A stretch of 64,000 nucleotides of DNA, from contig NC_037596.1 of assembly GCF_003073045.1 (NCBI RefSeq), positions 13,513,950 to 13,577,949 of the forward strand, given 5' to 3'. Below the pieces are notes generated by a model. The model did not search any database. It worked only from the letters and a program-made list of their open reading frames with translations, and was not told the DNA's origin. Made by a program: the position numbers and the translations under genes. How positions within the stretch are numbered: position 1 is the first letter of the stretch; each line of letters opens with the position of its first letter. Shown piece after piece: positions 23,608-59,131 of the stretch. This DNA comes from Pomacea canaliculata. Taxonomy: Eukaryota; Mollusca; Gastropoda; Architaenioglossa; Ampullariidae.

Positions 23608-24075
23608 TTTGCACTAAGTCAAACAAACACGCAGCTTCTAAAGAAAGGTACTTGCGCTGTACACAGCGAAGATCAGCTGTTGCTTTTCTGTTCGGCTGCA
23701 AGCACTATCACGGGGAGAAATCCGTAATCATAATCATATCCCCTAATTATGATAAATGTTATGACCTTAAATAACATGACGTTTAACAAACAGTCTAATA
23801 AATAGTTAAGAATCTACATTATTTAAACAATGAAGAAAAACTTATTATTTATATTATCAAAATAATTTGTTTTGCAGAAACCTCCCTACTTAAGAGGAAG
23901 GAAAACAGTTGCGTAATTGTATCTTATCAATAGTATTAATATATTAAATTACTTTAAAAACAAGTGGTACAAAGGAATTACATTCTTAAGGTTATTGTAT
24001 GATTTATTCCACACAGTTGATTTAGAACACAAAGGTCACATACGCAACTGCGTCTTTAAGCAAATCTCCGAAAAA
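23608..24075. promoter_or_regulatory. Shared head-to-head promoter region of AMPD2 and the H-lectin gene
   Basis: Only 468 bp separate the two divergent start codons, so both 5' UTRs and both core promoters must overlap here unless one gene has an upstream non-coding exon. I see no clear TATA box at a fixed distance from either ATG, unlike the peptide genes at 43-58 kb. That would fit a broadly expressed bidirectional promoter. Confidence 0.5.
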
Positions 24076-39080: not shown

Positions 39081-40794
39081 TTCCGCTGGTGATACGAAAG
39101 TCTGAAAGGTATTAAGCACTTTGACAATCTGTGGATCAAACTTTGTTTGTGTTAAAGACAATGAAGATAATAAAAACAATAAATATAAAGAGATATAAAG
39201 GTGCGGAAAACTGAAAGCTGTTTGAATATTGGAAACTGCACACTTACAATAAGCTTATTAAAAAAAATACAGAAAGTAATAGTATTTTAAATATTTTTTT
39301 AAATTTTGCTAAAAGATTTCGTAGCCTTGTAGTCAGGGCTATCATTTAAAGCAGTAGACTCATCTGAATGTTTACAACTATTTAAACTAACAGCTACAAA
39401 TGAACTGGAACTAAAAGAACAAAACATAAATACAAACAAACCGAGGACAAGAAGCAAACAAAACACAAGCTTGTCACTGCAACAGTTTTAGAAGATTATC
39501 TATATAAAAATAAATGAATTAAAGAGTATTTTCCTAACAGTAGTGTGGTTAGGACATCATAAAAGTTATAATAATTCAACATAAGTCTGAGAACAAATAC
39601 GCGATTAGTTATGATGGGGTCCAGATGAATCACTCAGACATCTGTCTTCCGGTCATACCTCTCTCCTGTGTGCTTCCAAGACTTCTCTTCAGAATTGCCG
39701 CAGGACTGATGTTTGGACCTTTTCGCTTTTTTGAAGTTGGCCGTACACTAAAGATATTTAGTTTCAGTAGACATTATATACATATGTATTCGCATTCATC
39801 ACACATTACCTACGCAATAAAGACACTGTAGTACAGGTGATGGTGAGATGTGATCAGCATCATTCATTCACCCCCTTCTTCAACCTCCCTTCCCCACTTT
39901 CTTTACAGTGGTGGCTGCTCTACTTGCTGACTAAGTGTAAAACATCAGTCCCCCTTCCCAAGCTACTCTCTTCATGGCGGGGGATCATGTCATCTAGTCT
40001 CCGAAAAGTAATGACATCCAAACCTGCTGCTGTGTTGTGGATGCAGCTTTCCAACTCCATATCAAGATCAGGATACGTGTGTCAGAAGCTAAAACGTTTT
40101 CAGGAAAATAACAAATGTTTTTCTTTTATTGTTCTATTTGCTCCCCGGGGATACAAACGCGGGAGGCAACAAACAATTTTTGTTATTTTTAGTAACTTTT
40201 AAGTGGAAATAATGAGCCTGTGCTTGATACAGGCCGGGCTGTAACTTTTGCAACTAAACAAAATATTTGCTGATTTTTTTTTCAACACGCGAGACACCTG
40301 TAATAACAATGTTTGTATGTGTGAAATGTTATTTCTGCAGTGCGTTTATTTGAAATACTTATTCGATCACCTTCCCTTTACTTATCCGATGTAATCATTC
40401 CGAACGTTGTAATGTTTTTGTTTTATATACAATACATCAATGATGAATCCAGAAAAACATTACATTGTACTAAACAGTAATATGGACAGTCCACACATTA
40501 TGACAAAATTACAGATGTTTTATTAAATATATTTTTCTTTGATTATTACTAGCATGTATGGTTAAAGAAGGCAGGCAAGTAAATTTGAGAAGTTAGATGT
40601 TAGAAATTAGAAACCCAAGTCATCTCGAGGCCAGCATTTTTTTACGACTGTGAGATGTGAGATGTTAGAGACCCTAGTCATTTTTGAGGACGGTGCCCTT
40701 CTTTTTCCCTTTGCTCCATCATCTTTACCAGCCTCTAAGGAATGAAGTACATATATCACCGTAAGTCAGCTGGAAGAAGTATTCTGCGTTCTAC

Positions 40795-42966: not shown

Positions 42967-42973
42967 TATAAAA
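42967..42973 (+). promoter_or_regulatory. TATA box of peptide gene 1
   Basis: TATAAAA lies 96 bp before the ATG. The following CTTGAGCTTTACTCTGAAT resembles the 5' UTR of peptide gene 5, which supports a shared core promoter. Confidence 0.7.
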
Positions 42974-43062
42974 CAAGGTGTGAGATTTCCTTGAGCTTTA
43001 CTCTGAATTCTGAGCTCTTTTGAGTGTACAGAGTATTTGCACCTAGAAGAGAAAAACGAATC

Positions 43063-45196
43063 ATGAAGACCTGCATCGTTCTGGTTATCGTCTGCATCGC
43101 CATAGACTCGATAGTCACCGGTGAGTTTGTCTTCATTAGTTACAATAAGCTCGACGGTGTTTGGGTAAGAATATACAGTGATACCTCGGTTCTCGAACAT
43201 AATTCGTTCCGGGAGGACGGTCGAGAACAAATTGTTCGAGAAACGAAGCAATGAAACCCATAGGAAATAATGGAAACTCGTTCCAAGCCCAGAAAATGCC
43301 TATTCTGGCTAATTTGTATATAATATGTAGAAAAACATGAGTCTCAACAAGAAATAAGAAATAAAGTGTATTTATTAAAACAAAAAAAAATAAATAAAAT
43401 GTACTGTACAGTACAGTCTGTACCTCTACAAACTTTATGGCAGGAGGGAATGAATGTGGAGGGAGGAGGGAAGGGGGATGGTTATTGTATTGAAGGGAGT
43501 CCTCTTCAATAAAAAGAGGTAACTATATCAGAATCTTGCTCTGCAGTTTGCTTGTCTGATTTCTTTACGGAGAGTGGACATAACTTGTCATTAAAATGTT
43601 AACTGCTATGTTGTTCAACAAAATTTGCGATTTCTGCTTTGTGGGATTAATGAACGCCATTCGGCTCAACTCGTTTATTTGTTCGATTCCAAGACAAATT
43701 TGAATTTCTGGTCGAATACCGATTTGGTCGAAAACCAAGGCGTTCGAGAACCGAGGTATCACTGTATATGTATACATGTATAGGTAAGTCATGTTATGAC
43801 TGAACCGAGTTTAAACTGGGATCAGAAAATTCCAGTTTCATATTCCTTGCTAGTGTGCTTCCAAGGAGAACTTAATGTATTGAAATTTGTACAATGTATG
43901 TTCTGATTAAGAAATATTAGGGGATGTTTCGACACACTAGAACACATTTAAATATGTGAATTGATGTGATATTTTGATTACAGAAAAGTGTTCAGAAGAA
44001 AGAACACACTTGATGGCTTCTTACATTCCTCCATCTATCTCTCGTGATCTTGAGTGTTTTACCTCAGCGTATTGTTTTTCGTTCTTTATTTACCAGTCCA
44101 TTTCTTTACATTGTCTATTATTATATTTTTTTTTTACTGCGGTTTTATTTGTTCCAGTAGAGAGATAAAGCCAGCGCGCGTAATCGTAGTCGTATCCTAA
44201 GCGTAACATTTGCGTGAGAGGTCAGGTCACGAGTTCAATGCCCGCTGAGCTGCTATTCCTTCGTTTGTTTGGCCAGAAGAGCGAGAAGTTTCTCATTTTT
44301 GACAAATAATATGTTTTAAAGATAATAGAGTTATATGTCCCACTAGTGCAAAAGGTCTTATATATTTTTTTCAATATTACTTATAAGAATTGAGATGGCT
44401 TTCTAGCCGGTTGTCGAGCGTGGTGTTGGAGCTTTGTGTTCTTCTGGTCAGCTGCACAACCCATTCCTAATTTTGAACACATTCTAGCCTTAAATCTGTT
44501 TAGATAAACAATTTTACTTAATCACAATGCACAATACATTTTAAAAACTTTAAAACTAAAATTGTTTTAAATAAGAAAAAATGCCCCGCTTTAACAAGAC
44601 TTTCTGTCCTGACAATACAACCAATCTAAGTGAGATGGAAGCTATGTTTTTCTCCGACAAAACACAGTACATAATTAATGGTTTTATGTGCTTTCACTAA
44701 TAAAAAGTGCAATGGCTTACATATGATGTCATTAAGTTTATTCGTTACCACGTTAACAAGTCTACGTATCCACAACAATTTTAGTTCTGAAAGTTTAATC
44801 AACTCGATTAGAAAACATTCGATTAGTCTGACATCAGTAGGAGTTTATGAAGCATGTAGAAAATTCCTGACAACTTTTATTTGCTGATGAGGGTCTAACG
44901 GTAATCATTACCAATTTGTTTGCTAATTAGGTTACATACTCCCCAAGAGGACCGCTGAAGAAGTTGAGACGAACCGTCGAGAGGTGGAAGCAGTCGCAGG
45001 GAATCTCTTGCACGCCAAGCGAGACCTGGAAGTTGATAGCGGCGTCATGGCCAAAAGGGGCCTTTTCGGTTTTGGTGACGACGACGACGACGACGACGAT
45101 GATGATGATGATGATTTTGATGATGATTTTGATGATGATTTTGATGATGATTTTGATGATGGCAAGAAAAAGCGCAAAGAGGCGATATTTGCTTGA
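43063..45196 (+). CDS. Peptide gene 1: secreted precursor with Asp-rich tail
   Basis: Exons 43063-43120 and 44931-45196 encode 107 aa. Exon 1 is a signal peptide (MKTCIVLVIVCIAIDSIVTG) and the intron is phase 1, as in the four later copies. Exon 2 has evenly spaced dibasic sites: GYILPKR, TAEEVETNRR, EVEAVAGNLLHAKR, DLEVDSGVMAKR. GLFGFG and an acidic block then follow, first about 13 Asp and then DDDF units. It closes with GKKKR and KEAIFA. A polyadenylation signal is at 45355. Cleavage at the dibasic sites would release short peptides plus the polyanion. I do not recognise the family. It could be a peptide hormone or defence precursor with an acidic spacer, or an Asp-rich matrix protein. It is the most diverged member apart from gene 5. 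Its intron carries a mariner-like MITE. Confidence 0.78.
43176..43764. mobile_element. Mariner-like MITE (589 bp)
   Basis: Ends are perfect inverted repeats over at least 23 bp, starting CAGTGATACCTCGG, with further inverted similarity inside. TA duplications flank it at 43174-43175 and 43765-43766, as for Tc1/mariner. It has no transposase ORF. It lies in the intron of peptide gene 1. Confidence 0.85.
44205..44255 (+). repeat. tRNA-like SINE head fragment
   Basis: A box B-like CGAGTTCAATGCCC occurs with a weak GTGAGAGGTCAGG before it, in the intron of peptide gene 1. It is too decayed to assign. Confidence 0.25.
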
Positions 45197-45760
45197 GGCT
45201 ATATTTAAAGACGGGGTATGGTGGTATTTCTTGCTGAACTTTGTGCACTGCAAAGGAAGAATTGTTTTTCAATGAAAATTCTGTCTGGTAACTTTCGCTG
45301 AAGCTAAGCAAGCTGAGACTGCTCCGTACAACGCCATCAACATACGATGAACGAAATAAACTTATTTAAAAACATCACCCGTTGAGTCAAAATTTTTTGT
45401 GGCTTGAAAAAGATGTGAAATGTTAAATAAAGCAAAAACAAATAAAGATTGCTCAAAGTCATCCTTTTAAAAAAATATTTGAAATGCTGACTTCAAACAC
45501 AAATAATCAGTTTTTTTTAATCTTCGCTTAGGAAGTTTAACAAATCTGAGTTGCTGATATGACAGTGGCTAAAAGAGTCAACCTCGTGATGTGTCCAGAA
45601 TTTCTGTCTGACATTTTTGGACAAGAAACGACTGACATCTGCCATCCACACACACACGCACGCACCCACGCACACAAACACACACATACACACGCTAAAT
45701 TAGTGATGATGTAAAAAAAACAAAACGAAAGGATCAGTGTCAGCTGGGAGTTCCACCCCG
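45197..45760. other. 3' UTR of peptide gene 1 and spacer
   Basis: It contains the AATAAA at 45355 and an AC-rich microsatellite at 45648-45696. The recent duplicated block begins near its right end. Confidence 0.55.
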
Positions 45761-46589
45761 TTGAAACAGGGATCTGATCCTCCTCTACCTATTAGCCATG
45801 TTTTGACAACAGAAAATCTATACCGTTCCGCATGACTGCTCATGACTTCTCCACAATCATTACTCGACAGCCACAAGCCACATGAAGGCCTGGTAATGTG
45901 AAGCTTGGCCACGACCTGGAATATTGCGCTAAATTAAAATTATTATTATATTTTTGCTTTTTGCACACATTTGAAAGAAAATATTTTATCAACTCTTATT
46001 GAAGAAAAGGTTAAAAGGTCTTGCCCAAACCCTTTTTTAAGCCGTTCGGGAGTGAGGTGTTGCACATGAGGTGTTTTATCTTTCCTAGGGGCCACATGTC
46101 TCTCCGCTTTCCCTTCCCTAACTCTCCATGGTACCCGACAGTTGGGTTGACTGGGGAGGTGGGACCCAGGGCTTGGAAGCCACTCTGCTATGCCCACCCC
46201 ACTCCACCCTTCAACACACACACGCTGTTTGTGAACTTCTTGTCAACAAAGATGGCACGATATGTTGACAAAGGTTTATCGAGTTTCATCGCATCATCTC
46301 TTTGACTCATCGCATGCTTCAAAAGCAACACTCGTGCTTTTGTCATGTTGACAACTCAGCATGGAAGCGCTTCAGGCAGAAGATGACAGTAACGCATTTA
46401 GGAAACTAAAATTGATAATCGGATGTTGTTATTTTTCGTCAAAACAAAGACCTCGTGTTCCAAACTACTTGCCTTTCCCTAACGCTCTATTTTACTATTT
46501 ATTATTACTAGCACGTCACAGTAATATTTTGTTCTATTCTTCCATCGATAAAAACTGATTTCTTTCGTTTTACTGTTGTCTTAATAAAG

Positions 46590-47092
46590 CTGCTTTCACA
46601 CTGTTAGCCAGAGTTGGGTTGCATGTGACGTTTTGCTAAGTCTTAAATCGCCGTCGCTCTCACTAAGTCGACTTAGCTAAGTTTGGTCTCACGAACTTGC
46701 CATTTAAGACCGACAGCTACAGACGCCTTTTCATGTCCTCACAAGCGAACAAACCAACAGCATTTTTTGGAAATTAAACAAAACACCTCTAGGCTTAACT
46801 TCCAAGACTAACCCAGTCAAGGATATATATATATGTGAGTTGCCAAACTATCAGCAATTGATCAATATTCGGTAAAACATGCCAATAAATATTTTACCGA
46901 AAAATTTAAAAATTCAATATTTTATTTAATTTATTACATCCAATCAAATTCTTTAGCTTGTGTACGTAATCTACTCGAATTACAGATGTGAAAGAAATAC
47001 GATTTCAGCAAAGCATTTGATTCAAATACTCTTTCTCTTTTTTTCTGTTGCTGTATGCTTCTCTTTCTCTCTCTTTCTCTCTCTCTCTCAAG
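46590..47092. mobile_element. Copy-specific insertion of about 503 bp, family unknown
   Basis: The sister copies read straight through this point (TTAATAAAG, then TATTAA). The extra segment is flanked by AAG on both sides, a possible 3-bp target duplication. It contains the palindrome AAGTCGACTT and ends in a CT microsatellite. No clear terminal inverted repeat was found. A short target site and no ORF suggest a small DNA element, possibly of Harbinger type. Deletion in the sister copies is less likely because both lack the same segment. Confidence 0.5.
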
Positions 47093-47678
47093 TCCATTAA
47101 CGTTGTCCTTAAATATTTCAATACGATGGCCTGTTTCTAAGAGCGAGCAACAATATTCTGGTTAAGAAATGGCTCAGATGTTTCTGAAGATGTTACTTTA
47201 GAGCCGTCCTATGAGATCTGCAGAGCTTAATTTTAAAAACTATTACTAGTTATATATTCTGAAAAAACTGCATAAGCATACAGTTGAAATGAATATGTAC
47301 ACTGACTACACTTTTTGACAAGTGGTTAGCGCATGCAAGTGTAAACGGACTTTCTCTGGCCACTCCGAAAACATCGTTGGCATATTATTCGGATGAATGG
47401 ACTCATGTCTGGTACAGGTGTTTCCTGTTATTCCTGTTACAATGAACGCTCACGTCTCGATATAATTAGTCTAGGGCTCATATGCTGCGAGCTGATCCTA
47501 GGTTTTGATAAAACCCCAGGAACAACAATCTACACCACAGGTCAATGGGATTGTACTTTGAAGATAACAATCTAACCATACAAGAGCAAACCTATCTTAC
47601 TGTGCTTCTGACGCCAGTTGCCCGCGGGTGTTTATTATTTTATAATTTTTTTGAATAAATCAGAGACAATTTGAAAAG

Positions 47679-47686
47679 TATAAAAA
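47679..47686 (+). promoter_or_regulatory. TATA box of peptide gene 2
   Basis: TATAAAAA lies 88 bp before the ATG, inside a block nearly identical to that of genes 3 and 4. Confidence 0.8.
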
Positions 47687-47766
47687 GGTGAGAGAAAGTC
47701 CTCATAGCTTCATACCGAGTCCCAGATTCTTCTGACAGGTAGAAAATCTTCTCAACACAAGCCAAC

Positions 47767-48777
47767 ATGAAGGTTTGCATCCTTTTCGTGGTCGTCTGCA
47801 TCGCACTGGTGACGGCGAAGTCCAGTAAGTACAGTTATATTGAATCATATTGCCAGGACTTAATAGACTAACATTTTTCATCGGATTTTAAGTAGGGTGG
47901 TAAGAGGGTTATAACCTGGACTTGACAACCAGTTTCAGACAGAATCTTTGTATTTCTGCTTTACAGACATTTGTGGTCTCTAAGTTTGCTTGAGTGCCAC
48001 ATTTTCCAAATAGGATTAAGGGAAACCTTCCTTTGTAGGACTTGTTTCACTCACAGAAATGTGAGGTACTCTCCCATCCTAGGCCGCAGTGATGAAGCGA
48101 GGTAAAGCATTGCCCCGGGGACAACATGAGGCAGAGTGCAGACACCACGGGAATTGCTTTATCTTACTTTTATTTTACCCTAGGGTATCTTTACCACTGC
48201 TTTATTCCCATAGTCCCATGGTCAAAGATTCCATTGGTCAATCAAGGTCTTCATGAACATCATTACACTTGTTTTTATTGTTAATGACTGTTCTTGTTTG
48301 TACTATAAAAAGAAGGTTGAGTCTATAAATCCTGCTTTTGCCTTTCTATGTAAGTACAATTCTGACTGCAGACATGTCCGATTCTGGATTCTACGAGGCA
48401 CCAGTGATAGAAATATAAATTTGTGTGCGTGCCTGCGTGCGTGCGTGCGTGCGTGTGTGTGTTGTTGTTGTTTAGTTCCAGAGATGGTTGCTGCAAAGCG
48501 TTCAGAGATAAGCCGTCGAGAGGCATTACCAGCGGCCAAACCAGATTTGCATGACCAAAAGCGCAGGGGCTTAGATCTCGACGACGATGATGTCGACGAT
48601 GATGTCGACGATGATGTCGACGACGATGATGTCGACGATGATGTCGACGACGATGATGTCGACGACGATGATGTCGACGATGATGTCGACGATGATCTTG
48701 ACGATGATGTCGACGATGATCTTGACGATGATTTCGATGATTATCTTGACGACCTGCTGGACGACAAAAAGCGCTGA
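47767..48777 (+). CDS. Peptide gene 2: secreted precursor with DDDV-repeat tail
   Basis: Exons 47767-47824 and 48476-48777 encode 119 aa. The signal peptide is MKVCILFVVVCIALVTAKS. Exon 2 starts IPEMVAAKR, SEISRR, EALPAAKPDLHDQKRR. About 60 residues that are nearly all Asp then follow, broken by single Val and later Leu or Phe (DDDV, DDDL, DDDF), ending LLDDKKR. The tail is written in GAC, GAT and GTC triplets and probably grows and shrinks by slippage. Dibasic sites would free EALPAAKPDLHDQ from the tail. The acceptor follows a GT and GTT tract. A polyadenylation signal is at 48907. The family is unrecognised. The tail's composition is like Asp-rich shell proteins such as aspein (known example), which suggests calcium binding, but an acidic propeptide is equally possible. 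Confidence 0.8.
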
Positions 48778-49075
48778 GATTCTGCAATCGGCTGCTGCCG
48801 GGTCATGCTGACCTTTAACCTTTGTGCACAACAATGGAGGAGCAATTTGTGTGTAAACATTCGGTCGTGGCTCCACGCTTTCAAATATGCGTCATAAACA
48901 AAACCGAATAAATAAACTATTAATGTGTCGATAAAGCATTTGTGTTTTTTGTTTAATTCAAATCCTTTACAACAGCTGTGTGTTTGCTGTTTATATTAGA
49001 GGCAAACTTATTGCCCTTTGCTCACGTTAAAAAGGGTCCGGGAGGGAGAGGAGTGTTTATCGTCGAATGGGCAAC

Positions 49076-49165
49076 ATACCTTGATCACATGCAGAAAAAA
49101 ACCCAGCGTGCTCGAGACGAGATCTGAACCCAGAACAGCTATTAATGGTTCTGAACATGCAGACA
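49076..49165 (-). repeat. SINE fragment
   Basis: On the minus strand a box B-like GGGTTCAGATCTCG and the neighbouring body match the SINE family of 7338. The same fragment sits in the matching place at 55466-55560, so it was copied with the segmental duplication. Confidence 0.6.
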
Positions 49166-50813
49166 CATTGTATGTTTCCGTTCTACTTTGTTTTTATATT
49201 TACTATCATTTGTAACTACCCAGGGTACCTGGCCTCGCCTCCAGGTCGATGTCTGCTACTCAACTATGAAATCAACTCACACTTTCCAATCTTTCTCCCT
49301 TGCTCGCCCTCCCTTTATGCACTTCCCTCACCCCTCTGTGTCATCTGTTACATCTAGAATGACAACGTCTGTTATTCTTAATAATCTAAAGCTTTATCGT
49401 GAAACGGATCTGATCCACCTCTACCTACTAGCAATGTTTTGACATCAGAAAATCGATACCGTTCCGCATGACTGCTCATGACTTCTGCACAATCATTACT
49501 CGACAGCGACAAGCCACATTAAGGCCTGGTAATGTGAAGCTTGGCCACGACCTGGAATATTGCGCAAAATTAAAATTATTATTATTATATTTTTGCTTTT
49601 TTGCACACATTTGAAAGAAAATATTTTATCAACTCTTATTGAAAAAAAAAGGTTTAAAAGGTCTTGCCGTAACCCTTGAAGCCGTTTGCGAGTGAGGTGT
49701 TAGAGATGAGGTCCTTTTTCTTTCATCGGGGCCACATGTCTCTCCCCTTTCCCTTCCCCTAACCCTCCATGGAACCAGACAGTTGGGTTAACTGGGGAGG
49801 AGGGACGCAGGGCTTGGAAGCCACTTTGCTATGAGCCTCCCACCCCATCCTTCAACACACACGCACAGTTGATGAACTTCTTGTCAACAAGGAGGGTAGG
49901 ATATGTTCACAAAGGTTATCGAGTTTCATTGAAAGGCTATCGGTACATCGCATCATCTCTTTCACTCATCGCATGCTTCAAAAGTAACTCTCGTGCTTTT
50001 GTCATGTTGACAACTCAGCATGGAAGCGCTTCAGGCAGAAGATGACAGTAACGCATTTAGAAAACAAATCGGATGTTGTTATTTTTAGTCAAAACAAAGA
50101 CCTCGTGTTCCAAACTACTTGCTTTTCCCTAATTCTCTATTTTACTATTTATTATTACTAGCACGTCACAGTAATATTTTGTACTATTCTTTCATCGATA
50201 AAAACTGAGTTCTTGCGTTTTACTGTTGTCTTAATAAAGTGTATTAACGTTGTCCTTAAACATTTCAATACGATGGCCTGTTTATAAGAGCGAGCAACTA
50301 TATTCTGGTTAAGAAATGGCTCAGATGTTTTTGAAGATATTCTTTAAGAGCCGTCCTATCAGATATCTGCAGTGCTTAATTTTAAAAACTATTACTAATT
50401 ATATATTCTGATAAAATTTCATAAACATATACTTGAAATGAATATGTACACTGACTTCACTTTTTGACAAGTGCTTAGCGCATGCAAACGTAAACAGACT
50501 TTCTCTGGCCACTTCGAAAACATTGTTGGAATATTATTCGGATGAATGGACTCATGCCTGGTACAGGTGTTTCCTGTTATTAATGTTATAATGAACGCTC
50601 ACGTCTCGATATACTTAGTCTAGGGCTCATATGCTGGAACTGATCCTAGGTTTTAATAAAACCCCAGCAACAACAATCTACACCACAGGTCAATTGGATT
50701 GCACTTCCAAGATCACAATCTAAACTAACAAGAGAAAGCCTTCTGACGCCAGATGCCTGTGGATGTTTATTATGTAATAACTTTTTTTAATAAATCAGAG
50801 ATAATTAAAAAAG

Positions 50814-50820
50814 TATAAAA
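50814..50820 (+). promoter_or_regulatory. TATA box of peptide gene 3
   Basis: TATAAAA lies 85 bp before the ATG in a block shared with genes 2 and 4. Confidence 0.8.
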
Positions 50821-50898
50821 AGGTGAGAAAAAGTCCTTTACGATTCATACCGAGTCCCAGATTCTTCTGACAGGTAGAAAATCTCAACACAAGCCAAC

Positions 50899-51853
50899 AT
50901 GAAGGTTTGCATCCTTTTGGTTGTCGTCTGCATCGCAATGGTGACGGTGAAGTCCGGTAAGTACAGTTATATTGAATCATATTGCCAGGACTTAATAGAC
51001 TAACATTTTTCATCGGATGATTTTAAGTAGGCTGGTAAGAGGGTTATAACCTTATAAGAGGGTTATATAGTCATAGAGCAGGGGTGGGCAATTAATTTTC
51101 CCAAGGGGCCGCATGAGAAATTGGAATGTTTTTAGAGGGCAGGACTAATATAGTTAACTCAGTTTTACCCAATACTGTATATGTAGTATATATACTGGTG
51201 GGCGGGTCATCGGGCAGGCCGGTCAGAGACAGGAGGCGGGCCGAATCCGGCCCGCGGGCCGGCCTTTGCCCAGGTCTGTCATAGAGGGTTATATATAGCC
51301 TGGACTTGACTACCAGTTTCAAAGCTTTCAGACAGAATCTTTGTATTTCTGCTTTACAGACATTTGTGGTCTCTAAGTTTACTTGAGTGCCACATTTTCC
51401 AAATAGGAATAAGGAAAACCTTCCTTTGTAGGACTTGTTTCACTCACCGTAGTTTGAGGTACACTCCCATCCTGGGCCGCAGTGATCAAGCGAGGTAAAG
51501 CATTGCCCCGGGGACAACATGAGGCAAATGGTGAACAGGTGTCTTGTGAAGCAGAGTGCAGACACCACGGGCATTGCTTTCTGTTACTTTTATTTTACCC
51601 TAAGGTACCTTTACCACTGCTTTATTCCCATAGTCCCATGGTAAAAGATACCAATGGTCAATCAAGGTCTTCATGAACATCATTACACTTGTTTATTGTT
51701 AATGACTGTTCTTGTTGTACTATAAAAAGAAGGTTGAGTCTATAAATCCTGCTTTTGCCTTTCTATGTAAGTACAACTCTGACTTCAGACATGTCCGATT
51801 CTGGATTCTAAGAGTGATGGAAGTATAAATTTGTGTGTGCGTGCGTGCGTGTG

Positions 51854-51889
<36 letters not shown>

Positions 51890-52243
51890 GTTCCAGAGAT
51901 GGTTGCTGCAAAGCGTTCAGAGATAAGCCGTCGAGAGGCATTACCAGCGGCCAAACCAGATTTGCATGACCAAAAGCGAAGGGGTGTTGATGACGACGAC
52001 TATGGTCCTGAAGATTATCCTATCTATGATGATGACGATGATACTGACGATGATACTGGCGATGATCTTGAAGAGCATTTCGATGATGAACTTGAAGAGG
52101 ATTTCGTTTATGGTCTTGACGAGTATTTCGATTATGGTCTTGACGAGGATCTTCACAAGGATCCTGACGATGATCCTGACGATGTTCCTGATGATGATCT
52201 TTACGAGGATCCTGACGACCTGCTGTACGGCAAAAAGAGCTGA
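50899..52243 (+). CDS. Peptide gene 3: secreted precursor with diverged acidic tail
   Basis: Exons 50899-50956 and 51891-52243 encode 136 aa. The signal peptide is MKVCILLVVVCIAMVTVKS. The first part of exon 2 (VPEMVAAKR, SEISRR, EALPAAKPDLHDQKRR) is identical to gene 2 except the junction residue. The tail is acidic but no longer a simple repeat. It begins GVDDDDYGPEDYPIYDD and continues with Glu, Tyr, Phe and Pro among the Asp (DLEE, GLDEYFDY, DPDD), ending LLYGKKS. So the dibasic-flanked segment is kept while the tail changes quickly. The acceptor follows about ten GTT units. A polyadenylation signal is at 52373. The intron carries a hAT-like element. Confidence 0.8.
51079..51278. mobile_element. 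Non-autonomous hAT-like element (200 bp)
   Basis: Ends are inverted (CAGGGGTGGGCAA at the left; CAGACCTGGGCAAAGG on the minus strand at the right) with GGCCCGCGGGCC inside. The 8-bp duplication TCATAGAG flanks it at 51071-51078 and 51279-51286. Gene 4's intron shows the empty site with a single TCATAGAG at about 54370. It is of the same broad type as the element at 32208. Confidence 0.92.
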
Positions 52244-52437
52244 GATGCTGTAATCGGCTTCTGCCGCGTCATGCTGACCTTTAACCTTTGTGCACAACAA
52301 TGGAGGAGCGATTTGTGTGTAAACATTCGGTCGTGGCTCCATGCTTTTAAATATGCGTCATAAACAAAGCCGAATAAATAAATTATTAATGTGTCAATAA
52401 AGCATTTGTGTTTTTTGTTTAATTTTTGTTAAATTTC

Positions 52438-52507
52438 AAACAACTAGAACTGCACGCGCATTACCCACAGAAGCCACAGACGCACTGCTACATTATTATT
52501 ATTATTA

Positions 52508-52559
<52 letters not shown>

Positions 52560-52815
52560 GTGGAAGTTCCAGCCAATGAGACACTAACAGCCATACGAAA
52601 TTGCTGCAAAAAAAATAAAATAAAATAAAATAAAAGCCTCAAATTCCATATGCAGTTCTATAAAAGAATGCAGTGAAATAACTACCTAAAAATTACCAAA
52701 GGCTTTAATTACGAAGAAATCTTCTCTCGTTTAGTGAAAATAATATATTAACTACATAATAAGTTTTCTTGACAGGCTTTATGACACTCGTTTGCGTACA
52801 GCTGTCTCATTTGTC
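52438..52815. repeat. Fragment of an unnamed repeat also at 55.8-56.6 kb and 63.4-64 kb
   Basis: It shares CAACTAGAACTGCACGCGC, GAAGTTCCAGCCAATGAGAC and GTTCTATAAAAGAATGCAG with 56360-56540. An ATT microsatellite has expanded inside it (52494-52559). Confidence 0.65.
52494..52559. repeat. ATT microsatellite
   Basis: More than twenty tandem ATT units with one imperfection. Confidence 0.95.
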
Positions 52816-52854
52816 CCATTCTAAGATTCCACATAGTTGCCCTTCCAAAGTAAT

Positions 52855-53000
52855 CATGGCTATATCACAGCCAAGCTGCCGGCCCTGTAAACAGATGTCA
52901 CATCCAGAGAAAAAAAAAGGTGTTCGAGATGAGATCTGAACACAGGAGAGATCTGAACAGTTTCCGCGCTGTTAACATACAGACACAAGGTGTGTTTCCA
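52855..53000 (-). repeat. SINE fragment
   Basis: It contains GCCGGCCCTGTAAACAGATG and a minus-strand box B-like GTTCAGATCTC, in the order of the 7338 copy. A near-identical fragment lies at 57108-57255, so this pair was probably duplicated with its surroundings. Confidence 0.65.
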
Positions 53001-54187
53001 GTTTCTCGAACAATACGGTTATCTGTGGAACAAATTACAAAAGTGAAGGGGAAACGTGCGCTAAATAAAAGTAGTAGTAGCAGTTGTTGTTGTTGTGAGC
53101 TTTGAGCCTCCGACCCCACCCCACCCTCCAACACACACACACACACTGTTGATGAACTTCTTGTCAACAAGGAGGGTAGGATATGCTCACAAAGGTTATC
53201 GAGTTTTATTGAAAGGCTATCGGTACATCGCATCATCTCTTTGACTCATCGCATGCTTCAAAAGTAACTCTCGTTCCTTTGTCATGTTGACAGCTCAGCA
53301 TGGAAGCGCTTCATGCAGAAGATGACAATATCACATTTAGAAAACTAAAATTGATTATCGGATGTTGTTATTTTTTGTCAAAACAAAGACCTCGTGTTCC
53401 AAACTACTTGCTTTTCCCTGATGCTCTATTTTACTATTTATTATTACTAGCAAGACACAGTAATATTTTGTACTATTCTTTCATCGATAAAAACTGAGTT
53501 CTTGCGTTTTACTGTTGTCTTAATAAAGTCTATTAAAGCTGTCCTTAAATATTTCAATACGATGGCCTGTTTATAAGAGCGAGCAACTATATTCTGGTTA
53601 AGAAATGGCTCAGATGTTTCTGAAGATGTTACTTAAGAGTCGTCCTATCAGATCTGCAGTGCTTAATTTTAAAAACTATTACTAATTATATATTCTGATA
53701 AAATTTCATAAACATATACTTGAAATGAATATGTACACTGACTACACTTTTTGACAAGTGGCTAGCGCATTCAAGTGTAAACAGACTTTTTCTGGCCACT
53801 CCGAAAACATTGTTGAAATATTATTCGGATGAATGAACTCATGCCTGGTGCAGGTGTTTCCTGTTATTCCTGTTACAATAAACGCTCACTTCACGATATA
53901 ATTAGTCTAGGGCTCATATGCTCCAACTGATCCTAGGTTTTGATAAAACCCTAGGAACAACAATCTGCACCACAGGGTCAATTGGATTGTACTTCCAACT
54001 TCCAAGATCACAATCTCCACTAACAAGACTAAGCCGGCTGCCTGCGGATGTTTATTATTTTATAATTTTTTTTGAATAAATCAGAGACTATTTGAAAAGT
54101 ATGAAAAGGTGAGAGAAAGTCCTCATAGCTTCATACCGAGCCGCAGATTCTTCTGACAGGTAGAAAATCTTCTCAAAACAAGCCAAC

Positions 54188-55312
54188 ATGAAGGTTTGCA
54201 TCCTTTTCGTTGTCGTCTGCATCGCACTGGTGACGGCGAAGTCCAGTAAGTAGAGTTACATTGAATCATATTGCCAGGACTTAATAGACTAATTTTTAAT
54301 CGGATGATTTTAAGTAGGCTGGTAAGAGGGTTATAACCTTATAAGAGGGTTATAAGAGGGTTATATAGTCATAGAGGGTTATAGCCTGGACTTGACTACC
54401 AGTTTCAAAGCTTTCAGACAGAATCTTTGTATTTCTGCTTTACAAACATTTGTGGTCTCTAAGTTTGCTTGAGTGCCACATTTTCCAAATAGGAATAAGG
54501 AAAACCTTCCTTTGTAGGACTTGTTTCACTCACAGAAATGTGAGGTACTCTCCCATCCTGGGCCGCAGTGATGAAGCAAGGTAAAGCATTGCCCCGGGAC
54601 AACATGAGGCTAAAGGCGGACACGTGTCTTGTGAAGCAGGGTACAGACACCCCGGGCATTGCTTTATCTTACTTTTATTTTAATCGAGCTTGACGACTGC
54701 TTTATTCCCATGGTCCCATGGTCAAAGATTCCAGTGGTCAATCAAGGTCTTTATGAACATCATTACACTTGTTTTTATTTTTAATGACTGCTCCAGTTTG
54801 TACTTACAAAAAGAAGGTTGAGTCTATAAATCCTGCTTTAGCCTTTCTATGTAAGTACAATTCTGACAACAGACATGTCCGATTCTGTATTCTAAGAGGT
54901 AGCAGTGATGGAAGTATAAATTTGTGTGTGTGCGTGCGTGCGCGCGTGTTGTTGTTGTTTAGTTCCAGACATGGTTGCTGCAAAGCGTTCAGAGATAAGT
55001 CGTCGAGAGGCATTACCAGCGGCCAAACCAGATTTGCATGACCAAAAGCGCAGGGGTGTTGATGACGACGACTATGGTCCTAAAGATGATCCTTTCGATG
55101 ATCCTGACGATGATCCTGACGATGATACTGACGGTAATCCTGAAGAGTATTTCGATAATGATCTTGACGAGGATTTCGATGATGATCTTGACGAGGATCT
55201 TGACAAGGATCCTGACGAGGATCCTGATGATGATCTTGACGAAAATCCTGACGACCTGTTGCACGCTAAAAAGCGCTGTGATGCTGTAGCGGGCGTCTGG
55301 GTTTGTGTATAA
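54188..55312 (+). CDS. Peptide gene 4: secreted precursor, acidic tail and extended C terminus
   Basis: Exons 54188-54245 and 54963-55312 encode 135 aa. The signal peptide equals that of gene 2. Exon 2 begins IPDMVAAKR, SEISRR, EALPAAKPDLHDQKRR, so the dibasic-flanked peptide is unchanged. The tail opens GVDDDDYGPKDDPFDD and runs on in DPDD, DLDED and NPEE units. Where gene 2 stops after LLDDKKR, this gene has LLHAKKR and reads on for ten residues (CDAVAGVWVCV, two Cys). Its TATA position reads TATGAAAA (54100), weaker than in the other copies. These changes suggest relaxed constraint, though the frame is fully open. A polyadenylation signal is at 55392. Confidence 0.76.
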
Positions 55313-55465
55313 CAATGGAGGAGCAATTTGTGAGTAAACATTCGGTCCTGGCTCCACGCTTTCAAATATGCGTCAAAAACAAAACCGAAGAAATAAATTA
55401 TTAATGTGTGAATAAAGCATTTGTGTTTTTCTGTTTAATTCAAATCCTTTACAACAGCTGTGTGG

Positions 55466-55560
55466 GCAACATGGTTTGATCACATGCAGAAAAAAACTAC
55501 CCTTTCTCGAGACGAGATCTGAACCACGTTGTTTACATGCAGACACAATGTGTGTTTCCG
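55466..55560 (-). repeat. SINE fragment
   Basis: Minus-strand box B-like GGTTCAGATCTCG; the counterpart of 49076-49165 after gene 2. Confidence 0.55.
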
Positions 55561-55844
55561 TTCTACTTTGCTTTTATATTTATTATCAGTTGTAACTACC
55601 CAGGGTACCTGGCCTCGCCTCCAGGTCGATGTCTGCTACTCAACGTGGAAATAAACTCACACTTTCCAATCTTTCTCGCTTGCCACCCTCCCTCTATGCA
55701 CCTCCCTCACCCCTCTGTGTCATCTGTTACATCTAGAATGACAACGTCTGTTATTTCTAATTGTCTAGAGCTTTAACGTGTAACGGAGAAAACAGAAACT
55801 AAAATCGCAAAAAGCATCAAAAAAGAAACATTCTCTGGTGAAAT

Positions 55845-56650
55845 ACACACCATATAACATTTTCCCTGACCTAGACATATATTCCAGAAATTGCTAATTA
55901 TTATCTCTTCTATTATCTGGTGTCAGTAAACTTCGGTGGGATTTTATTGTAAGTGGAGATCGCTGGATCAAGGTTACAAACTTATTCAATAATAAAATAG
56001 AATGCGGTCAGAATAAGCAGAAAACAAGCAAACGACGTCCGTCTTCCTTTTTTCTGCATTCAGGTGTTCACATCTTTTTATGTTTTAATTGCCGTCACAT
56101 AGACAAATACATTTTTTGTGATATGTTTAACATTGGAACATATGTACGTTGATCATCATATTTTAAACCTAAAGCCAGAACATGGCAAACCACCATAAAC
56201 ACAAGTGAACTTAAGATTATTAAACTACAGAAATACACTGATGACATGGATAATTACTTTTGGCATTACTTACCAAGCAAAGTGCACTTAATGGTGTCCC
56301 CACCACAGTTGCCGACAACGTGAATAACCCATTGAAGTCTGCGAGTTTTGTAATTAAATGTCGGACAACTAGAACTGCACGCGCACTGCCCACAGAAGCC
56401 ACAGACGCACTGCTACATCGATGACAAATATTGATAACAATTATTATGTGGAAGTTCCAGCCAATGAGACACTAATAGCAGTAGGTCGACAAAAATAAAA
56501 GCCTCAAACACCATCTGTGGTTCTATAAAAGAATGCAGAGAAATAACAATTCTTCTCTCGTTTTGTGAAAATAATATGTATACTAGGTAGTACATTTGTT
56601 TGACAGTCTTTATGACACTCGTTTGCGGACAGCTGTCTCTTTTGTCCGAT
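55845..56650. repeat. Unnamed repeat, fullest copy
   Basis: It aligns over about 550 bp with 63440-64000 (ACATATATTCCAGAAATTGC to the right end of the window) and in part with 52438-52815. It may hold a small gene (see 55986-56412). Confidence 0.7.
55986..56412 (-). CDS. Possible cysteine-rich two-exon fragment
   Basis: On the minus strand the segment 56274-56412 sits between an AG acceptor and a GTAAGT donor. It reads a frame with nine Cys, including CVCGFCGQCACSSSC and NCGGDTIKC. The next segment, 55986-56053, follows a TGAATGCAG acceptor, joins in phase and ends in a stop after RILFYY. No signal-peptide exon was identified, although a hydrophobic open stretch lies at about 56444-56514. 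The related copies at 52.4 kb and 63.9 kb are interrupted by stops in the Cys-rich part, so those are not coding. Density of Cys and good splice sites are the only support; chance is possible. Confidence 0.3.
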
Positions 56651-58040
56651 GTCTTTTGATTGCAGGTCAAAGACCAAACTGAATGGATGCCAAGTGCGAA
56701 TCGAGTACTTTGCTGGCGGATAATTAATTAATGGAAAGGTTTTTGAGGCTGAAATTTACGTATTAGTTTTATATCGCATATATCTACTGATATTTAAAAA
56801 AACGAAAGCCGTTCAGGTTGATCTTTAATGTCAAAAGTGGATGAAATGAAAGCTGAATATCAGATGATCCCTTTTACATTGTTTGCCTGTAGTCGCAAGT
56901 ACGAGTTTTGTGTCTATCAACAATATATAACTAATATTTGGCAGGAAAGGTCCAGCAGATGAAAAAGCCGCGGTTCAAAATTAGAAGTCATTGTTTGAAC
57001 AGCAAACTCATTTCTGATGCAACTTGGTATTTTTCATCTATTGCTTTAGTTACGATATACTAAAACTCACATGAGGAGGATTTCACCTATTTGCCCTTCC
57101 AAAGTAACCGTGGCTATATCACAGCCAGGCTGCCGGCCCTGTGAAACAGATGTCACATCCAGAGAAAGAAACAACAACAATGTGTTCGAGATGAATTCTG
57201 AACACAGGAGAGCTCTGAACAGTTACCGAGTTTTTAATATACAGACACAAGGTGTTTCCAGTCTACTTTGTTTTTATTCTACAATCATTCGTAATTAAGC
57301 AGATGGTGAACCTGTCCGCGCCCCGAGGTTGATTTTTGCTTTTCAGAGTGGAAATAAAACTTTTATTCTTCTTACTGCCGAAAATGAGTCTTTTTTTCTA
57401 AGTTCTTTCCTTAGTATTTACTTACAGCATAGTGATCATTTTTAACAAATTTTTTTTTTTTTTTTTTTATTAATCCTACCGAAGTCGTGACTATTCCTTC
57501 TCGTCAAGACTCTAAAGGTTTCTTCGCGCTGAATTGTAAGAATTCAAACTAAACCAGATTAATGAATGTTAAATACTACTGGTCAAGTACCTGCGCCAGG
57601 ACATTTTGTAGAATAAAGATGTGTCAACGTAAAAGGTGATGTTGATGCCGACGAAGTATCGCGCTTCTGTAGAAAAAATATTTTCCTTACCCACGAAAGG
57701 AACCAATAAAGATGTAAAATTTTTCACTAATCTTTACGACCAGCTACATTTGCGCAGACTGTCAGAAGTTCCGTGGTTCTGACACGGCAGAACAGTTTAA
57801 TAAAAATTTCGTATGAACAGTTTCTAATGATATTGCTAGCTGAAAATATTTTCAAGAAGACTACCGCAACAGCAGTTTATTCAAAGGGTTCAATTAATAA
57901 GCACACGCTTGGTCGTAATTAAATAAAAATAGAAAGATCAAAAGTAACACGATACCTGTATATGTTGCACTGTTTCCTTTGTTAAACGGGTGTTTATTGA
58001 TTGGATGATTTTCTCGCAGATAGGAGACTAATTAAAAAAA
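56651..58040. other. Intergenic spacer before peptide gene 5
   Basis: It contains a SINE fragment (57108-57255) and a T run near 57452. No gene is seen. Confidence 0.5.
57108..57255 (-). repeat. SINE fragment
   Basis: It shares GCCGGCCCTG, CAGATGTCACATCCAGAG and GTTCGAGATGA with 52855-53000, in the same order and with similar flanks. Confidence 0.62.
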
Positions 58041-58044
58041 AAAG

Positions 58045-58052
58045 TATAAAAA
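58045..58052 (+). promoter_or_regulatory. TATA box of peptide gene 5
   Basis: TATAAAAA lies 85 bp before the ATG. The AAAGTATAAAAAGG context and the CTTCTGAC of the 5' UTR match genes 2 and 3, although exon 2 of this gene is quite different. Confidence 0.8.
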
Positions 58053-58129
58053 GGTCGGTTGAGTCTTTGAGCTTCATTCTGAATCCGGAGGTCTTCTGAC
58101 TGGTACAGAAAATTAGTGAAAACTGAAAC

Positions 58130-59131
58130 ATGAAGGTTTGTGTTATTCTGGTTGTCGTCGGCATAGCCATGACGAGTGCGGAATACGGTAAGAACTTTAC
58201 TTTGAGTTTAGTTGAATTGTTCTGGTGGTCGGGAAGATTTGATACCTAGAGCACCTAACAGCGTTCGCCACAACGACCTTTGCTAAAGGCCAGCATAAAG
58301 GTTCTTCGTGATAAGCTCTGTTCATTGTTCTACGTTTGCCATACAGGTTTTTCTAAAGAAATCCCATTTGGCTGGTTTATTTCTGTTTTCTCCGTTCATA
58401 CTAAAGATTTTTTTTTACTTGTCAGAGTTGTTATCATTGCATATACTTCTGACACTGAAGTTTGTTGTTCTTGAGGTTTGTTGCTATTGAGTACAGTAAG
58501 GTCATTGTCGACTGTGAGGTGAATGTTTGAAATACGTCTACCGATGGAGAGAGTATATTCTTTATGAAGAATTCCTTTTGGTGTGTTCAAAAGATCGTAG
58601 GGAGGCCTCTTCAGGTGTGGACTGGGCAGCCAAAGAACGCAGAGAAGCCTCTTCAGGTATGGACTGGGCAGCCAAAGAACGCAGAGAAGCCTCTCCAGGC
58701 TTTGACTGGTTAACCAAAGAACGCAGAGAAGCCTCTCCAGGCTTTGACTGGTTAACCAAAGAACGCAGAGAAGCCTCTCCAGGGTGGTACCCGGTCGCCA
58801 AAGAACGCAGAGAAGCCTCTCCAGGTTGGTACCCGGTCGCCAAAGAACGCCGAGAAGCCTCTCCAGGTTGGTACCGGTCGCCAAAGAACGCAGAGAAGCC
58901 TCTCCAGGGTGGTACCCGGTCGCCAAAGAACGCCGAGAAGCCTCTCCAGGGTGGTACCCGGTCGCCAAAGAACGCAGAGAAGCCTCTCCAGGGTGGTACC
59001 CGGTCGCCAAAGAACGCAGAGAAGCCTCTCCAGGGTGGTACCCGGTCGCCAAAGAACGCAGAGAAGCCTCTCCAGGGTGGTACCCGGTGGCCAAGGAACG
59101 AAGAGAAGCCTCTCCAGGCTGGGGACCATAG
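58130..59131 (+). CDS. Peptide gene 5: multi-copy peptide precursor with KERR spacers
   Basis: Exon 1 (58130-58187) encodes the signal peptide MKVCVILVVVGIAMTSAEY. Exon 2 most likely starts at 58594, giving a phase-1 intron like the other four genes. Exon 2 is an array of about thirteen 42-nt units. The units read REASSGVDWAAKER, REASPGFDWLTKER and then REASPGWYPVAKER. Each boundary has KERR, a furin- or Kex2-like site. Cleavage after RR would free copies of EASSGVDWAAKE, EASPGFDWLTKE and EASPGWYPVAKE. This is the layout of multi-copy neuropeptide precursors. The array is not one continuous frame: about half of it reads in phase with exon 1, and the later units keep the peptide sense in another frame that ends near 59131. 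Assembly error, a decayed gene or a real alternative end are all possible. Function is unknown. Confidence 0.68.
58603..59120 (+). repeat. 42-nt tandem repeat array inside peptide gene 5
   Basis: About thirteen units of 42 nt (14 codons), recognisable by AACGCAGAGAAGCCTCTCC. Units at the left differ in the peptide core and those at the right are nearly identical, so the array grew recently toward the right. Long ORFs on the opposite strand are by-products of the repeat. Confidence 0.92.

What the first reader, a model, noticed from the sequence alone, without database searches (positions are those of the whole stretch)
42967..59131. Undescribed five-gene family of secreted precursors with a constant signal exon and a variable second exon
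Seen: five plus-strand genes, each with a TATA-type box 85-96 bp before the ATG, a first coding exon of exactly 58 nt, a phase-1 intron and one second exon rich in KR, RR or KRR. Signal peptides are clearly homologous (MKVCILxVVVCIA), while mature regions range from almost pure Asp to Trp/Tyr-bearing repeats. A conserved signal with a fast-changing product is known from secreted peptide families such as conopeptides and antimicrobial peptides. I recognise no family.
Basis: partly seen in the sequence, partly recalled or inferred. Interest (0 to 1): 0.88.

Follow-up and report, generated by a model that had tools for sequence, protein, structure and literature searches.

The report
Apple-snail cluster of hypervariable repeat peptides
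A probable apple-snail genome carries one cluster of small secreted-protein genes that share a promoter and a signal exon but encode very different products, either strings of short peptides with a changing core or long runs of aspartate, and they match no known family in the libraries searched.

Summary
They are the left end of a larger cluster: 14 such genes (4 poly-Asp 'D', 10 repeat 'W', one degenerate) plus 5 related 'X' signal exons, one strand, about 240 kb, found nowhere else in the 440-Mb genome, by size Pomacea canaliculata. Promoter and signal exon are homologous between D and W (E 7e-15 or better; reversed control 0.53). 'Variable second exon' is half right: in the W unit RR-EA-SP-G is constrained (pN/pS 0.14) and the next four residues are not (1.27); in D2-D4 the start of exon 2 is the most conserved stretch and the acidic tail varies. 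Window gene 5 changes frame inside its array in this assembly; W4-W9 do not. Best reading: precursors cut at dibasic sites, the W type built like fungal KEX2-processed repeat proteins with XA/XP dipeptides before a variable core. No family, structure or paper found matches. Expression, processing and function are untested.

The parts
42967..42974 (+). TATA box of D1 (gene 1), -96 from the ATG
43063..43120 (+). D1 exon 1, signal MKTCIVLVIVCIAIDSIVT(G), 58 nt, donor gtgagt
44931..45196 (+). D1 exon 2: ..PKR TAEEVETN RR EVEAVAGNLLHA KR DLEVDSGVMA KR + poly-Asp tail (45059-45193, net charge -20)
47767..47824 (+). D2 (gene 2) exon 1, signal exon 58 nt
48476..48567 (+). D2 exon 2 conserved part: IPEMVAA KR SEIS RR EALPAAKPDLHDQ KRR
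   Evidence: 97-99% nt identity among D2-D4; 13-mer identical in all three
48568..48777 (+). D2 acidic tail (DDDV)n, net charge -44, ends KKR-stop
50899..50956 (+). D3 (gene 3) exon 1
51891..52243 (+). D3 exon 2: conserved part 51891-51982, acidic tail from 51983, net charge -40
54188..54245 (+). D4 (gene 4) exon 1
54963..55312 (+). D4 exon 2: conserved part 54963-55054, acidic tail from 55055, net charge -36
58045..58050 (+). TATA box of W1 (-85); the same box at -85 or -86 in W2-W9
58130..58187 (+). W1 (gene 5) exon 1, signal MKVCVILVVVGIAMTSAEY
58594..59131 (+). W1 exon 2: array of 13 RREA-led units (RREASPG[W/F]xxxxAKE type); the unit at 58848-58888 is 41 nt long, so the frame changes there in this assembly

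Best explanation
This is a tandemly amplified family of small secreted precursors made from one promoter plus signal-exon module joined to two kinds of second exon. SHOWN from sequence: homologous promoter and signal exon; phase-1 intron models; coding frame of the repeat under constraint; dibasic sites constant; a four-residue core free to vary; recent duplication and broken copies. INFERRED: the signal peptide is removed; a proprotein convertase cuts after RR/KR; a carboxypeptidase trims the basic residues; and, as in fungal alpha-pheromone precursors, a dipeptidyl peptidase may remove the constant EA and SP dipeptides, leaving G-[W/F]-xxx-A-[K/Q/E]-E peptides whose core differs between units and genes. 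On this reading the constant part of the unit is the processing signal and the variable part is the product. The D2-D4 genes release one fixed 13-mer (EALPAAKPDLHDQ) and a polyanionic tail likely to bind calcium or other cations. The high turnover points to an outward-facing (exocrine) peptide mixture, for defence or chemical communication, rather than a conserved neurohormone.
For: Single-strand, single-locus cluster: 13 places within 3 mismatches of the signal-exon pattern in 440 Mb, all C7 plus strand, plus one degenerate copy. Cross-type promoter/signal homology (reversed control). 50 units of length divisible by 3 from nine W genes, 22 different peptides (each read from its own RREA start, also behind the breaks of W1 and W2). 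Over 27 unique 42-nt units, codons 1-7 have pN 0.039 and pS 0.276 (0.14), codons 8-11 pN 0.475 and pS 0.375 (1.27); in the +1 and +2 frames the constant stretch shows pN above pS. R1, R2, E3, A4 and E14 are invariant in 27 of 27. Amino-acid diversity is 0.08 in codons 1-7 and 0.72 in 8-11, and this contrast stays when any one of the eight genes with such units is left out. W4-W9 have 30 of 30 unit spacings divisible by 3, including units of 39, 45 and 75 nt. No fold is predicted for a W second exon (mean pLDDT 43.8). The genome encodes proprotein-convertase and DPP-IV-type domains. Fungal precursors with KEX2 sites followed by XA/XP dipeptides are described in PMC9769878 (passages).
Against: No transcript, splice read or peptide was seen. 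The RR sites sit in KERREA, which could also be helical and uncut. The acceptor of the W genes (ttttggtgtgttcaaaag) has a poor pyrimidine tract by eye, and the frame ahead of it is open in several copies, so the start of exon 2 is uncertain. Over the whole unit the frame contrast is weaker: pN/pS 0.63 against 0.83 and 1.37 in the shifted frames, and one minus-strand frame also shows low pN (0.058 against pS 0.216). W units are related by tandem duplication, so 27 unique units are not 27 independent events. W1 and W2 are broken, W3 truncated and W10 decayed as assembled. The outward-facing role rests on turnover alone. DPP-type trimming has no direct support; 2 of 27 unique units read SS instead of SP.
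Confidence: 0.5

Rival explanations
1. Matrix family: D genes are acidic calcium-binding matrix proteins and W genes uncut structural repeat proteins of mucus, shell or the vaterite egg capsule.
For: Acidic tails of net charge -20 to -44 resemble acidic shell proteins such as Aspein (recalled). If the host is P. canaliculata, it makes calcified egg capsules of vaterite (PMC13394694, abstract). The shared promoter suggests one tissue.
Against: The main text of the capsule paper has no hit for 'aspart' (passages; its supplements could not be read here, and it has a group of proteins without known domains, section 17). D2-D4 carry a conserved 13-mer bounded by RR and KRR, unexpected if only the tail mattered. 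The W core shows no constraint and no fold is predicted.
Confidence: 0.22
2. Neuropeptide or peptide-hormone precursors of the usual molluscan kind.
For: Signal peptide, many dibasic sites and multi-copy short peptides; D1 has Gly before KKKR, D3 Gly before KKS, possible amidation signals.
Against: All 22 distinct W unit peptides end in Glu, none in Gly, before the next RR; the core is hypervariable; young and broken copies, unlike conserved hormones.
Confidence: 0.13
3. Host-defence (antimicrobial) peptides, like the mussel myticalins: conserved signal, dibasic site, anionic C-terminal extension.
For: Myticalin precursors have a conserved signal, hypervariable mature part, dibasic site, anionic extension and a phase-1 intron (PMC5577615, passages).
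Against: The seven predicted peptides examined are anionic (-1 to -3), not cationic; the intron lies after the signal, not after the mature peptide; in D2-D4 the short peptide is constant and the extension varies.
Confidence: 0.1
4. Repeat expansion without a product: a 42-bp minisatellite and GAY triplet runs that happen to be open.
For: The W arrays are the longest tandem arrays of period 18 or more in the fetched 264 kb; frames break in W1 and W2.
Against: Frame-specific constraint; 30 of 30 spacings in frame in W4-W9; promoter, donor and signal retained.
Confidence: 0.05

Closest known systems
Fungal KEX2-processed repeat proteins (KEPs) / ascomycete alpha-pheromone precursors
   Same: Signal peptide, tandem short cores between dibasic sites, XA/XP dipeptides directly after the cut site (PMC9769878, passages); here RR|EA-SP|G..., in D2-D4 RR|EA-LP|...
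   Different: Animal gene with an intron after the signal; convertases of another lineage; no sequence homology shown or tested; processing not tested.
Myticalins and modiocalins (mussel antimicrobial peptides)
   Same: Conserved signal, dibasic site, acidic C-terminal extension, phase-1 intron, multigene family (PMC5577615, passages).
   Different: Intron position and exon order differ; the peptides examined here are anionic; the extension here is poly-Asp and the more variable part.
Conopeptide superfamilies
   Same: Fast-changing secreted peptide genes in a snail (PMC10561478, passages); their conserved signal is general knowledge.
   Different: Mostly three exons there; here two exons in the models, multi-copy linear units and no cysteine framework.
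Aspein/Asprich-type acidic shell proteins (recalled)
   Same: Secreted, Asp-rich.
   Different: D genes carry several dibasic sites and, in D2-D4, a fixed 13-mer; no shell evidence.
APGWamide precursors (recalled)
   Same: PGW string in repeats.
   Different: No PGWG followed by a dibasic site in any of the 22 distinct unit peptides.

Membership tests
Fungal KEP / alpha-factor type | signal peptide plus tandem cores between dibasic sites | tested here: met
   W4-W9; the signal itself judged by eye, no predictor run
Fungal KEP / alpha-factor type | XA/XP dipeptides after the cut site | tested here: met
   position 4 Ala in 27 of 27, position 6 Pro in 25 of 27 unique 42-nt units
Fungal KEP / alpha-factor type | cleavage by KEX2, KEX1 and STE13 and fungal descent | not testable with these tools
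   snail genome; only works-like is claimed
Myticalins | cationic Pro/Arg-rich mature peptide | tested here: not met
   the seven peptides examined have net charge -1 to -3
Myticalins | signal and mature peptide in one exon, phase-1 intron behind them | tested here: not met
   intron directly behind the signal in the models
Conopeptides | cysteine framework in the mature peptide | tested here: not met
   20 of 22 distinct unit peptides have no Cys, two have one
Molluscan neuropeptides | C-terminal amidation signal (G before dibasic) | tested here: not met
   W units 0 of 22 distinct peptides; possible in D1 and D3, so not excluded there
Acidic shell matrix proteins | presence in a mineralised matrix | not testable with these tools
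   no proteome data readable here
Any Pfam or NCBIfam family | score above the curated cut-off | tested here: not met
   Pfam: three D precursors and six W second-exon pieces, best 20.9 bits against a cut-off of 43; NCBIfam: four second exons, none; D4 was not scanned

The most novel reading that the evidence does not exclude
An animal has evolved, independently of fungi, an alpha-factor-like peptide system: a promoter-signal-exon cassette tandemly amplified into about ten genes, whose units keep a fixed processing code (KE-RR-EA-SP) around a freely varying, mostly aromatic-led core, giving each individual a changeable cocktail of short secreted peptides for chemical communication or defence, with poly-Asp sister genes released from the same cells.
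Probability: 0.25. Interest if true: 0.85.

Novelty: new variant of a known kind. Interest (0 to 1): 0.6.

Why it matters
If the units are cut as they look, the cluster is a natural experiment in peptide diversification: the processing signals are constant while a four-residue core changes between units and genes. It would also be a peptide family so far found only in this one genome, apparently that of an invasive snail, with possible relevance to its mucus, eggs or chemical signals. The prediction is directly testable, since peptide masses can be computed from the genome.

Tried and rejected
Known-family matches: Pfam, NCBIfam and PDB sequence searches gave nothing over cut-off. A paper search for six peptide strings found none; searches for Pomacea with neuropeptide, shell/egg-capsule, pheromone and shell-protein terms and for Asp-rich proteins showed no title or abstract start describing this family. 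Those listings were capped where many papers fitted (20 of 1,041, 12 of 60, 12 of 39); only open-licence PMC papers are held and supplements could not be read. Rfam gave nothing in the window. Ependymin-related identity of the minus-strand gene at 38832-39254 was suspected from memory and not supported by Pfam. Second exons of the X-type signal exons were sought by comparing the open frames of one X region with the other four and not found. A structure prediction of the W6 second exon (seven-row alignment) gave no confident fold, so no fold search was run. Conopeptide, myticalin and APGWamide membership were considered and rejected on the features listed.
Full report
WHERE IT IS. The window lies at C7:13513950-13577949 of a 440,159,624-base, 24-contig genome. 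This fits the published golden apple snail assembly: 440.1 Mb, 14 chromosome scaffolds, long reads (PMC6129957, passages). The name Pomacea canaliculata is therefore an inference from size, not given by any record.

THE OBSERVATION. All five signal exons are present and exactly 58 nt long. Genes 1-4 (here D1-D4) join in phase 1 to give open precursors of 107, 119, 136 and 135 residues. TATAAA stands at -96, -88, -85 and -85 for genes 1, 2, 3 and 5; gene 4 has TATGAA. AATAAA follows the stops of D1-D4 by 79-158 nt. Gene 5 (W1) has a 42-nt array of 11.8 copies, but one unit is 41 nt, so the frame changes midway in this assembly. The assembly is from long reads and the site lies in a repeat, so an assembly error is possible; it was not mended.

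THE FAMILY IS LARGER. The W1 signal exon has nine further matches, all on C7, plus strand, up to 220 kb downstream; the last is degenerate. D2-type gives three places, D1-type one. A 30-nt signal pattern with up to 3 mismatches gives 13 places in the whole genome, all in this cluster and on one strand (reversed-pattern control: 1). The W repeat protein gives 23 matches, 22 in the cluster and one weak (E 0.002) on C6. D4 exon 2 matches only D2-D4, and a 48-residue part of D1 exon 2 only itself. A profile of promoter plus signal exon shows a third type, X (MKVCIIVATMCVAVAVAS), five copies in the genome; two are intact and nearly identical, three look broken by eye; no second exon was found. I fetched 208 kb downstream of the window (L009-L029). 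The 11 kb between L028 and L029 (13777950-13788949) and everything beyond the fetched ends were searched only by the whole-genome queries, whose counts are lower bounds.

COMMON ORIGIN. A W-only profile of -110..+64 finds D1-D4 at E 3e-16, 4e-15, 2e-18 and 7e-15; a D-only profile finds W1-W9 at 4e-25 to 3e-20 but not W10 (the rows come from one joint alignment). The reversed sequence yields nothing below 0.53 with the joint profile. Shared 5' regions imply shared regulation; that is inference.

WHAT VARIES. Among D2-D4, nucleotide identity is 91-98% in exon 1, 92.5-94% in the intron, 97-99% in the first 92 nt of exon 2 and 72-88% in the acidic tail; the 250 nt behind the stop are at 78-82%. 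So signal conservation here hardly exceeds the general youth of the copies; the 13-mer EALPAAKPDLHDQ, identical in all three, is the conserved product. In the tail, D3 and D4 differ by 24 nonsynonymous and 3 synonymous changes (pN 0.133, pS 0.072), D2 against either by pN 0.23-0.24 and pS 0.46-0.47, so the evidence on selection there is mixed. Among W genes exon 1 is more constrained (3 of 58 variable columns against 91 of 385 in the intron and 18 of 99 just upstream; 8 genes, W2 left out for its exon-1 deletion), although all three variable columns are nonsynonymous (read).

THE REPEAT UNIT. Nine W genes hold 50 complete units of length divisible by 3, 22 different peptides. Each unit was read from its own RREA start, also behind the breaks of W1 and W2; units of other lengths or over 54 nt, and the last unit of each gene, were dropped. 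The commonest are RREASPGWYPVAKE (9), RREASPGWDDWAAKE (7) and RREASPGFSPVAKE (5). On the 27 unique units among the 40 of 42 nt (the ten of 39 or 45 nt left out, so W7 is not represented), codons 1-7 have pN/pS 0.14, codons 8-11 1.27, codons 12-14 0.44; the whole unit 0.63, against 0.83 and 1.37 in shifted frames. Residue 8 is Trp or Phe in 22 of 27. In the other two plus frames the constant stretch shows pN above pS; one minus frame shows a weaker copy of the pattern, as its third positions coincide. Leaving out any one of eight genes keeps the amino-acid contrast (0.06-0.09 against 0.70-0.73). W4-W9 have 30 of 30 unit spacings divisible by 3; W1 has 1 of 12 and W2 3 of 13 that are not. W3 has two units and an unrelated end.

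MECHANISM. The W precursor reads signal - EYD - RR - [EASPG(W/F)xxxA(K/Q/E)E - RR]n - EASPG... The natural reading is convertase cutting at RR. What follows each RR is EA-SP (EA-LP in D2-D4): X-Ala and X-Pro dipeptides. Fungal KEX2-processed repeat proteins carry just this motif, removed by STE13, as in alpha-pheromones (PMC9769878, passages). The selection pattern fits: constant processing code, free core. The genome encodes proprotein-convertase P domains (7 matches) and DPP-IV N-domains (5 matches, all over cut-off), as animal genomes generally do (general knowledge), so this is permissive only. AlphaFold finds no fold in a W second exon (mean pLDDT 43.8, shallow alignment).

FUNCTION. Young tandem blocks in the cluster region (up to 12 kb at 98%), unequal unit numbers (2 to 14) and broken copies are birth-and-death, usual for exocrine peptides that face enemies, mates or prey and unusual for hormones (general knowledge). 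The seven predicted peptides examined are anionic, against classical antimicrobials. The D tails could bind calcium; the capsule study of this species reports chitin-binding proteins, sulfatases and calcium-binding proteins, has a third group without known domains, and its main text has no hit for 'aspart' (PMC13394694, abstract, section 17 and passages; supplements not seen). I put exocrine peptides first, matrix second.

NOVELTY. No library or paper listing seen names the family. No other eukaryotic genome was available, so restriction to this species is not shown. The kind (dibasic multi-peptide precursor) is known; the combination of a shared promoter-signal cassette, poly-Asp and hypervariable-core branches, and an alpha-factor-like dipeptide code in an animal appears new to me.

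Noticed in passing
C7:13608649, 13651183, 13676086, 13753562 and L029:7391: Five 'X' signal exons (MKVCIIVATMCVAVAVAS in two intact copies) lie 2.6-9 kb behind W genes; promoter and signal related to D and W genes, second exon not found, three copies look broken.
   Followed up: partly
C7:13682263-13694289 and 13765751-13777756: Two 12-kb blocks 98% identical, and further blocks of 1-6 kb at 81-98%: very recent segmental duplication of the cluster region.
   Followed up: no
window 43171-43769: Perfect 28-bp inverted repeats 543 nt apart inside the D1 intron, like a small terminal-inverted-repeat element.
   Followed up: partly
window 38832-39254, minus strand: Open frame with a signal-like start (MKMFSVCGLIVLVLVVSTKG) and several Cys; no Pfam match above cut-off.
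   Followed up: partly
window 23917-24669, plus strand: 250-residue open frame with a likely C-terminal membrane segment by eye; no Pfam or NCBIfam match above cut-off.
   Followed up: partly
C7 about 13755190-13755960 (chrom offset 241242 on): Open frame resembling a LINE endonuclease (ILQWNAEGVYNKK...) just behind an X exon, judged by eye.
   Followed up: no
W genes, upstream of the exon-2 acceptor: The frame GECLKYVYRWREYILYEEFLLVCSK stays open and similar in several W copies ahead of the presumed acceptor, so exon 2 might begin earlier.
   Followed up: no
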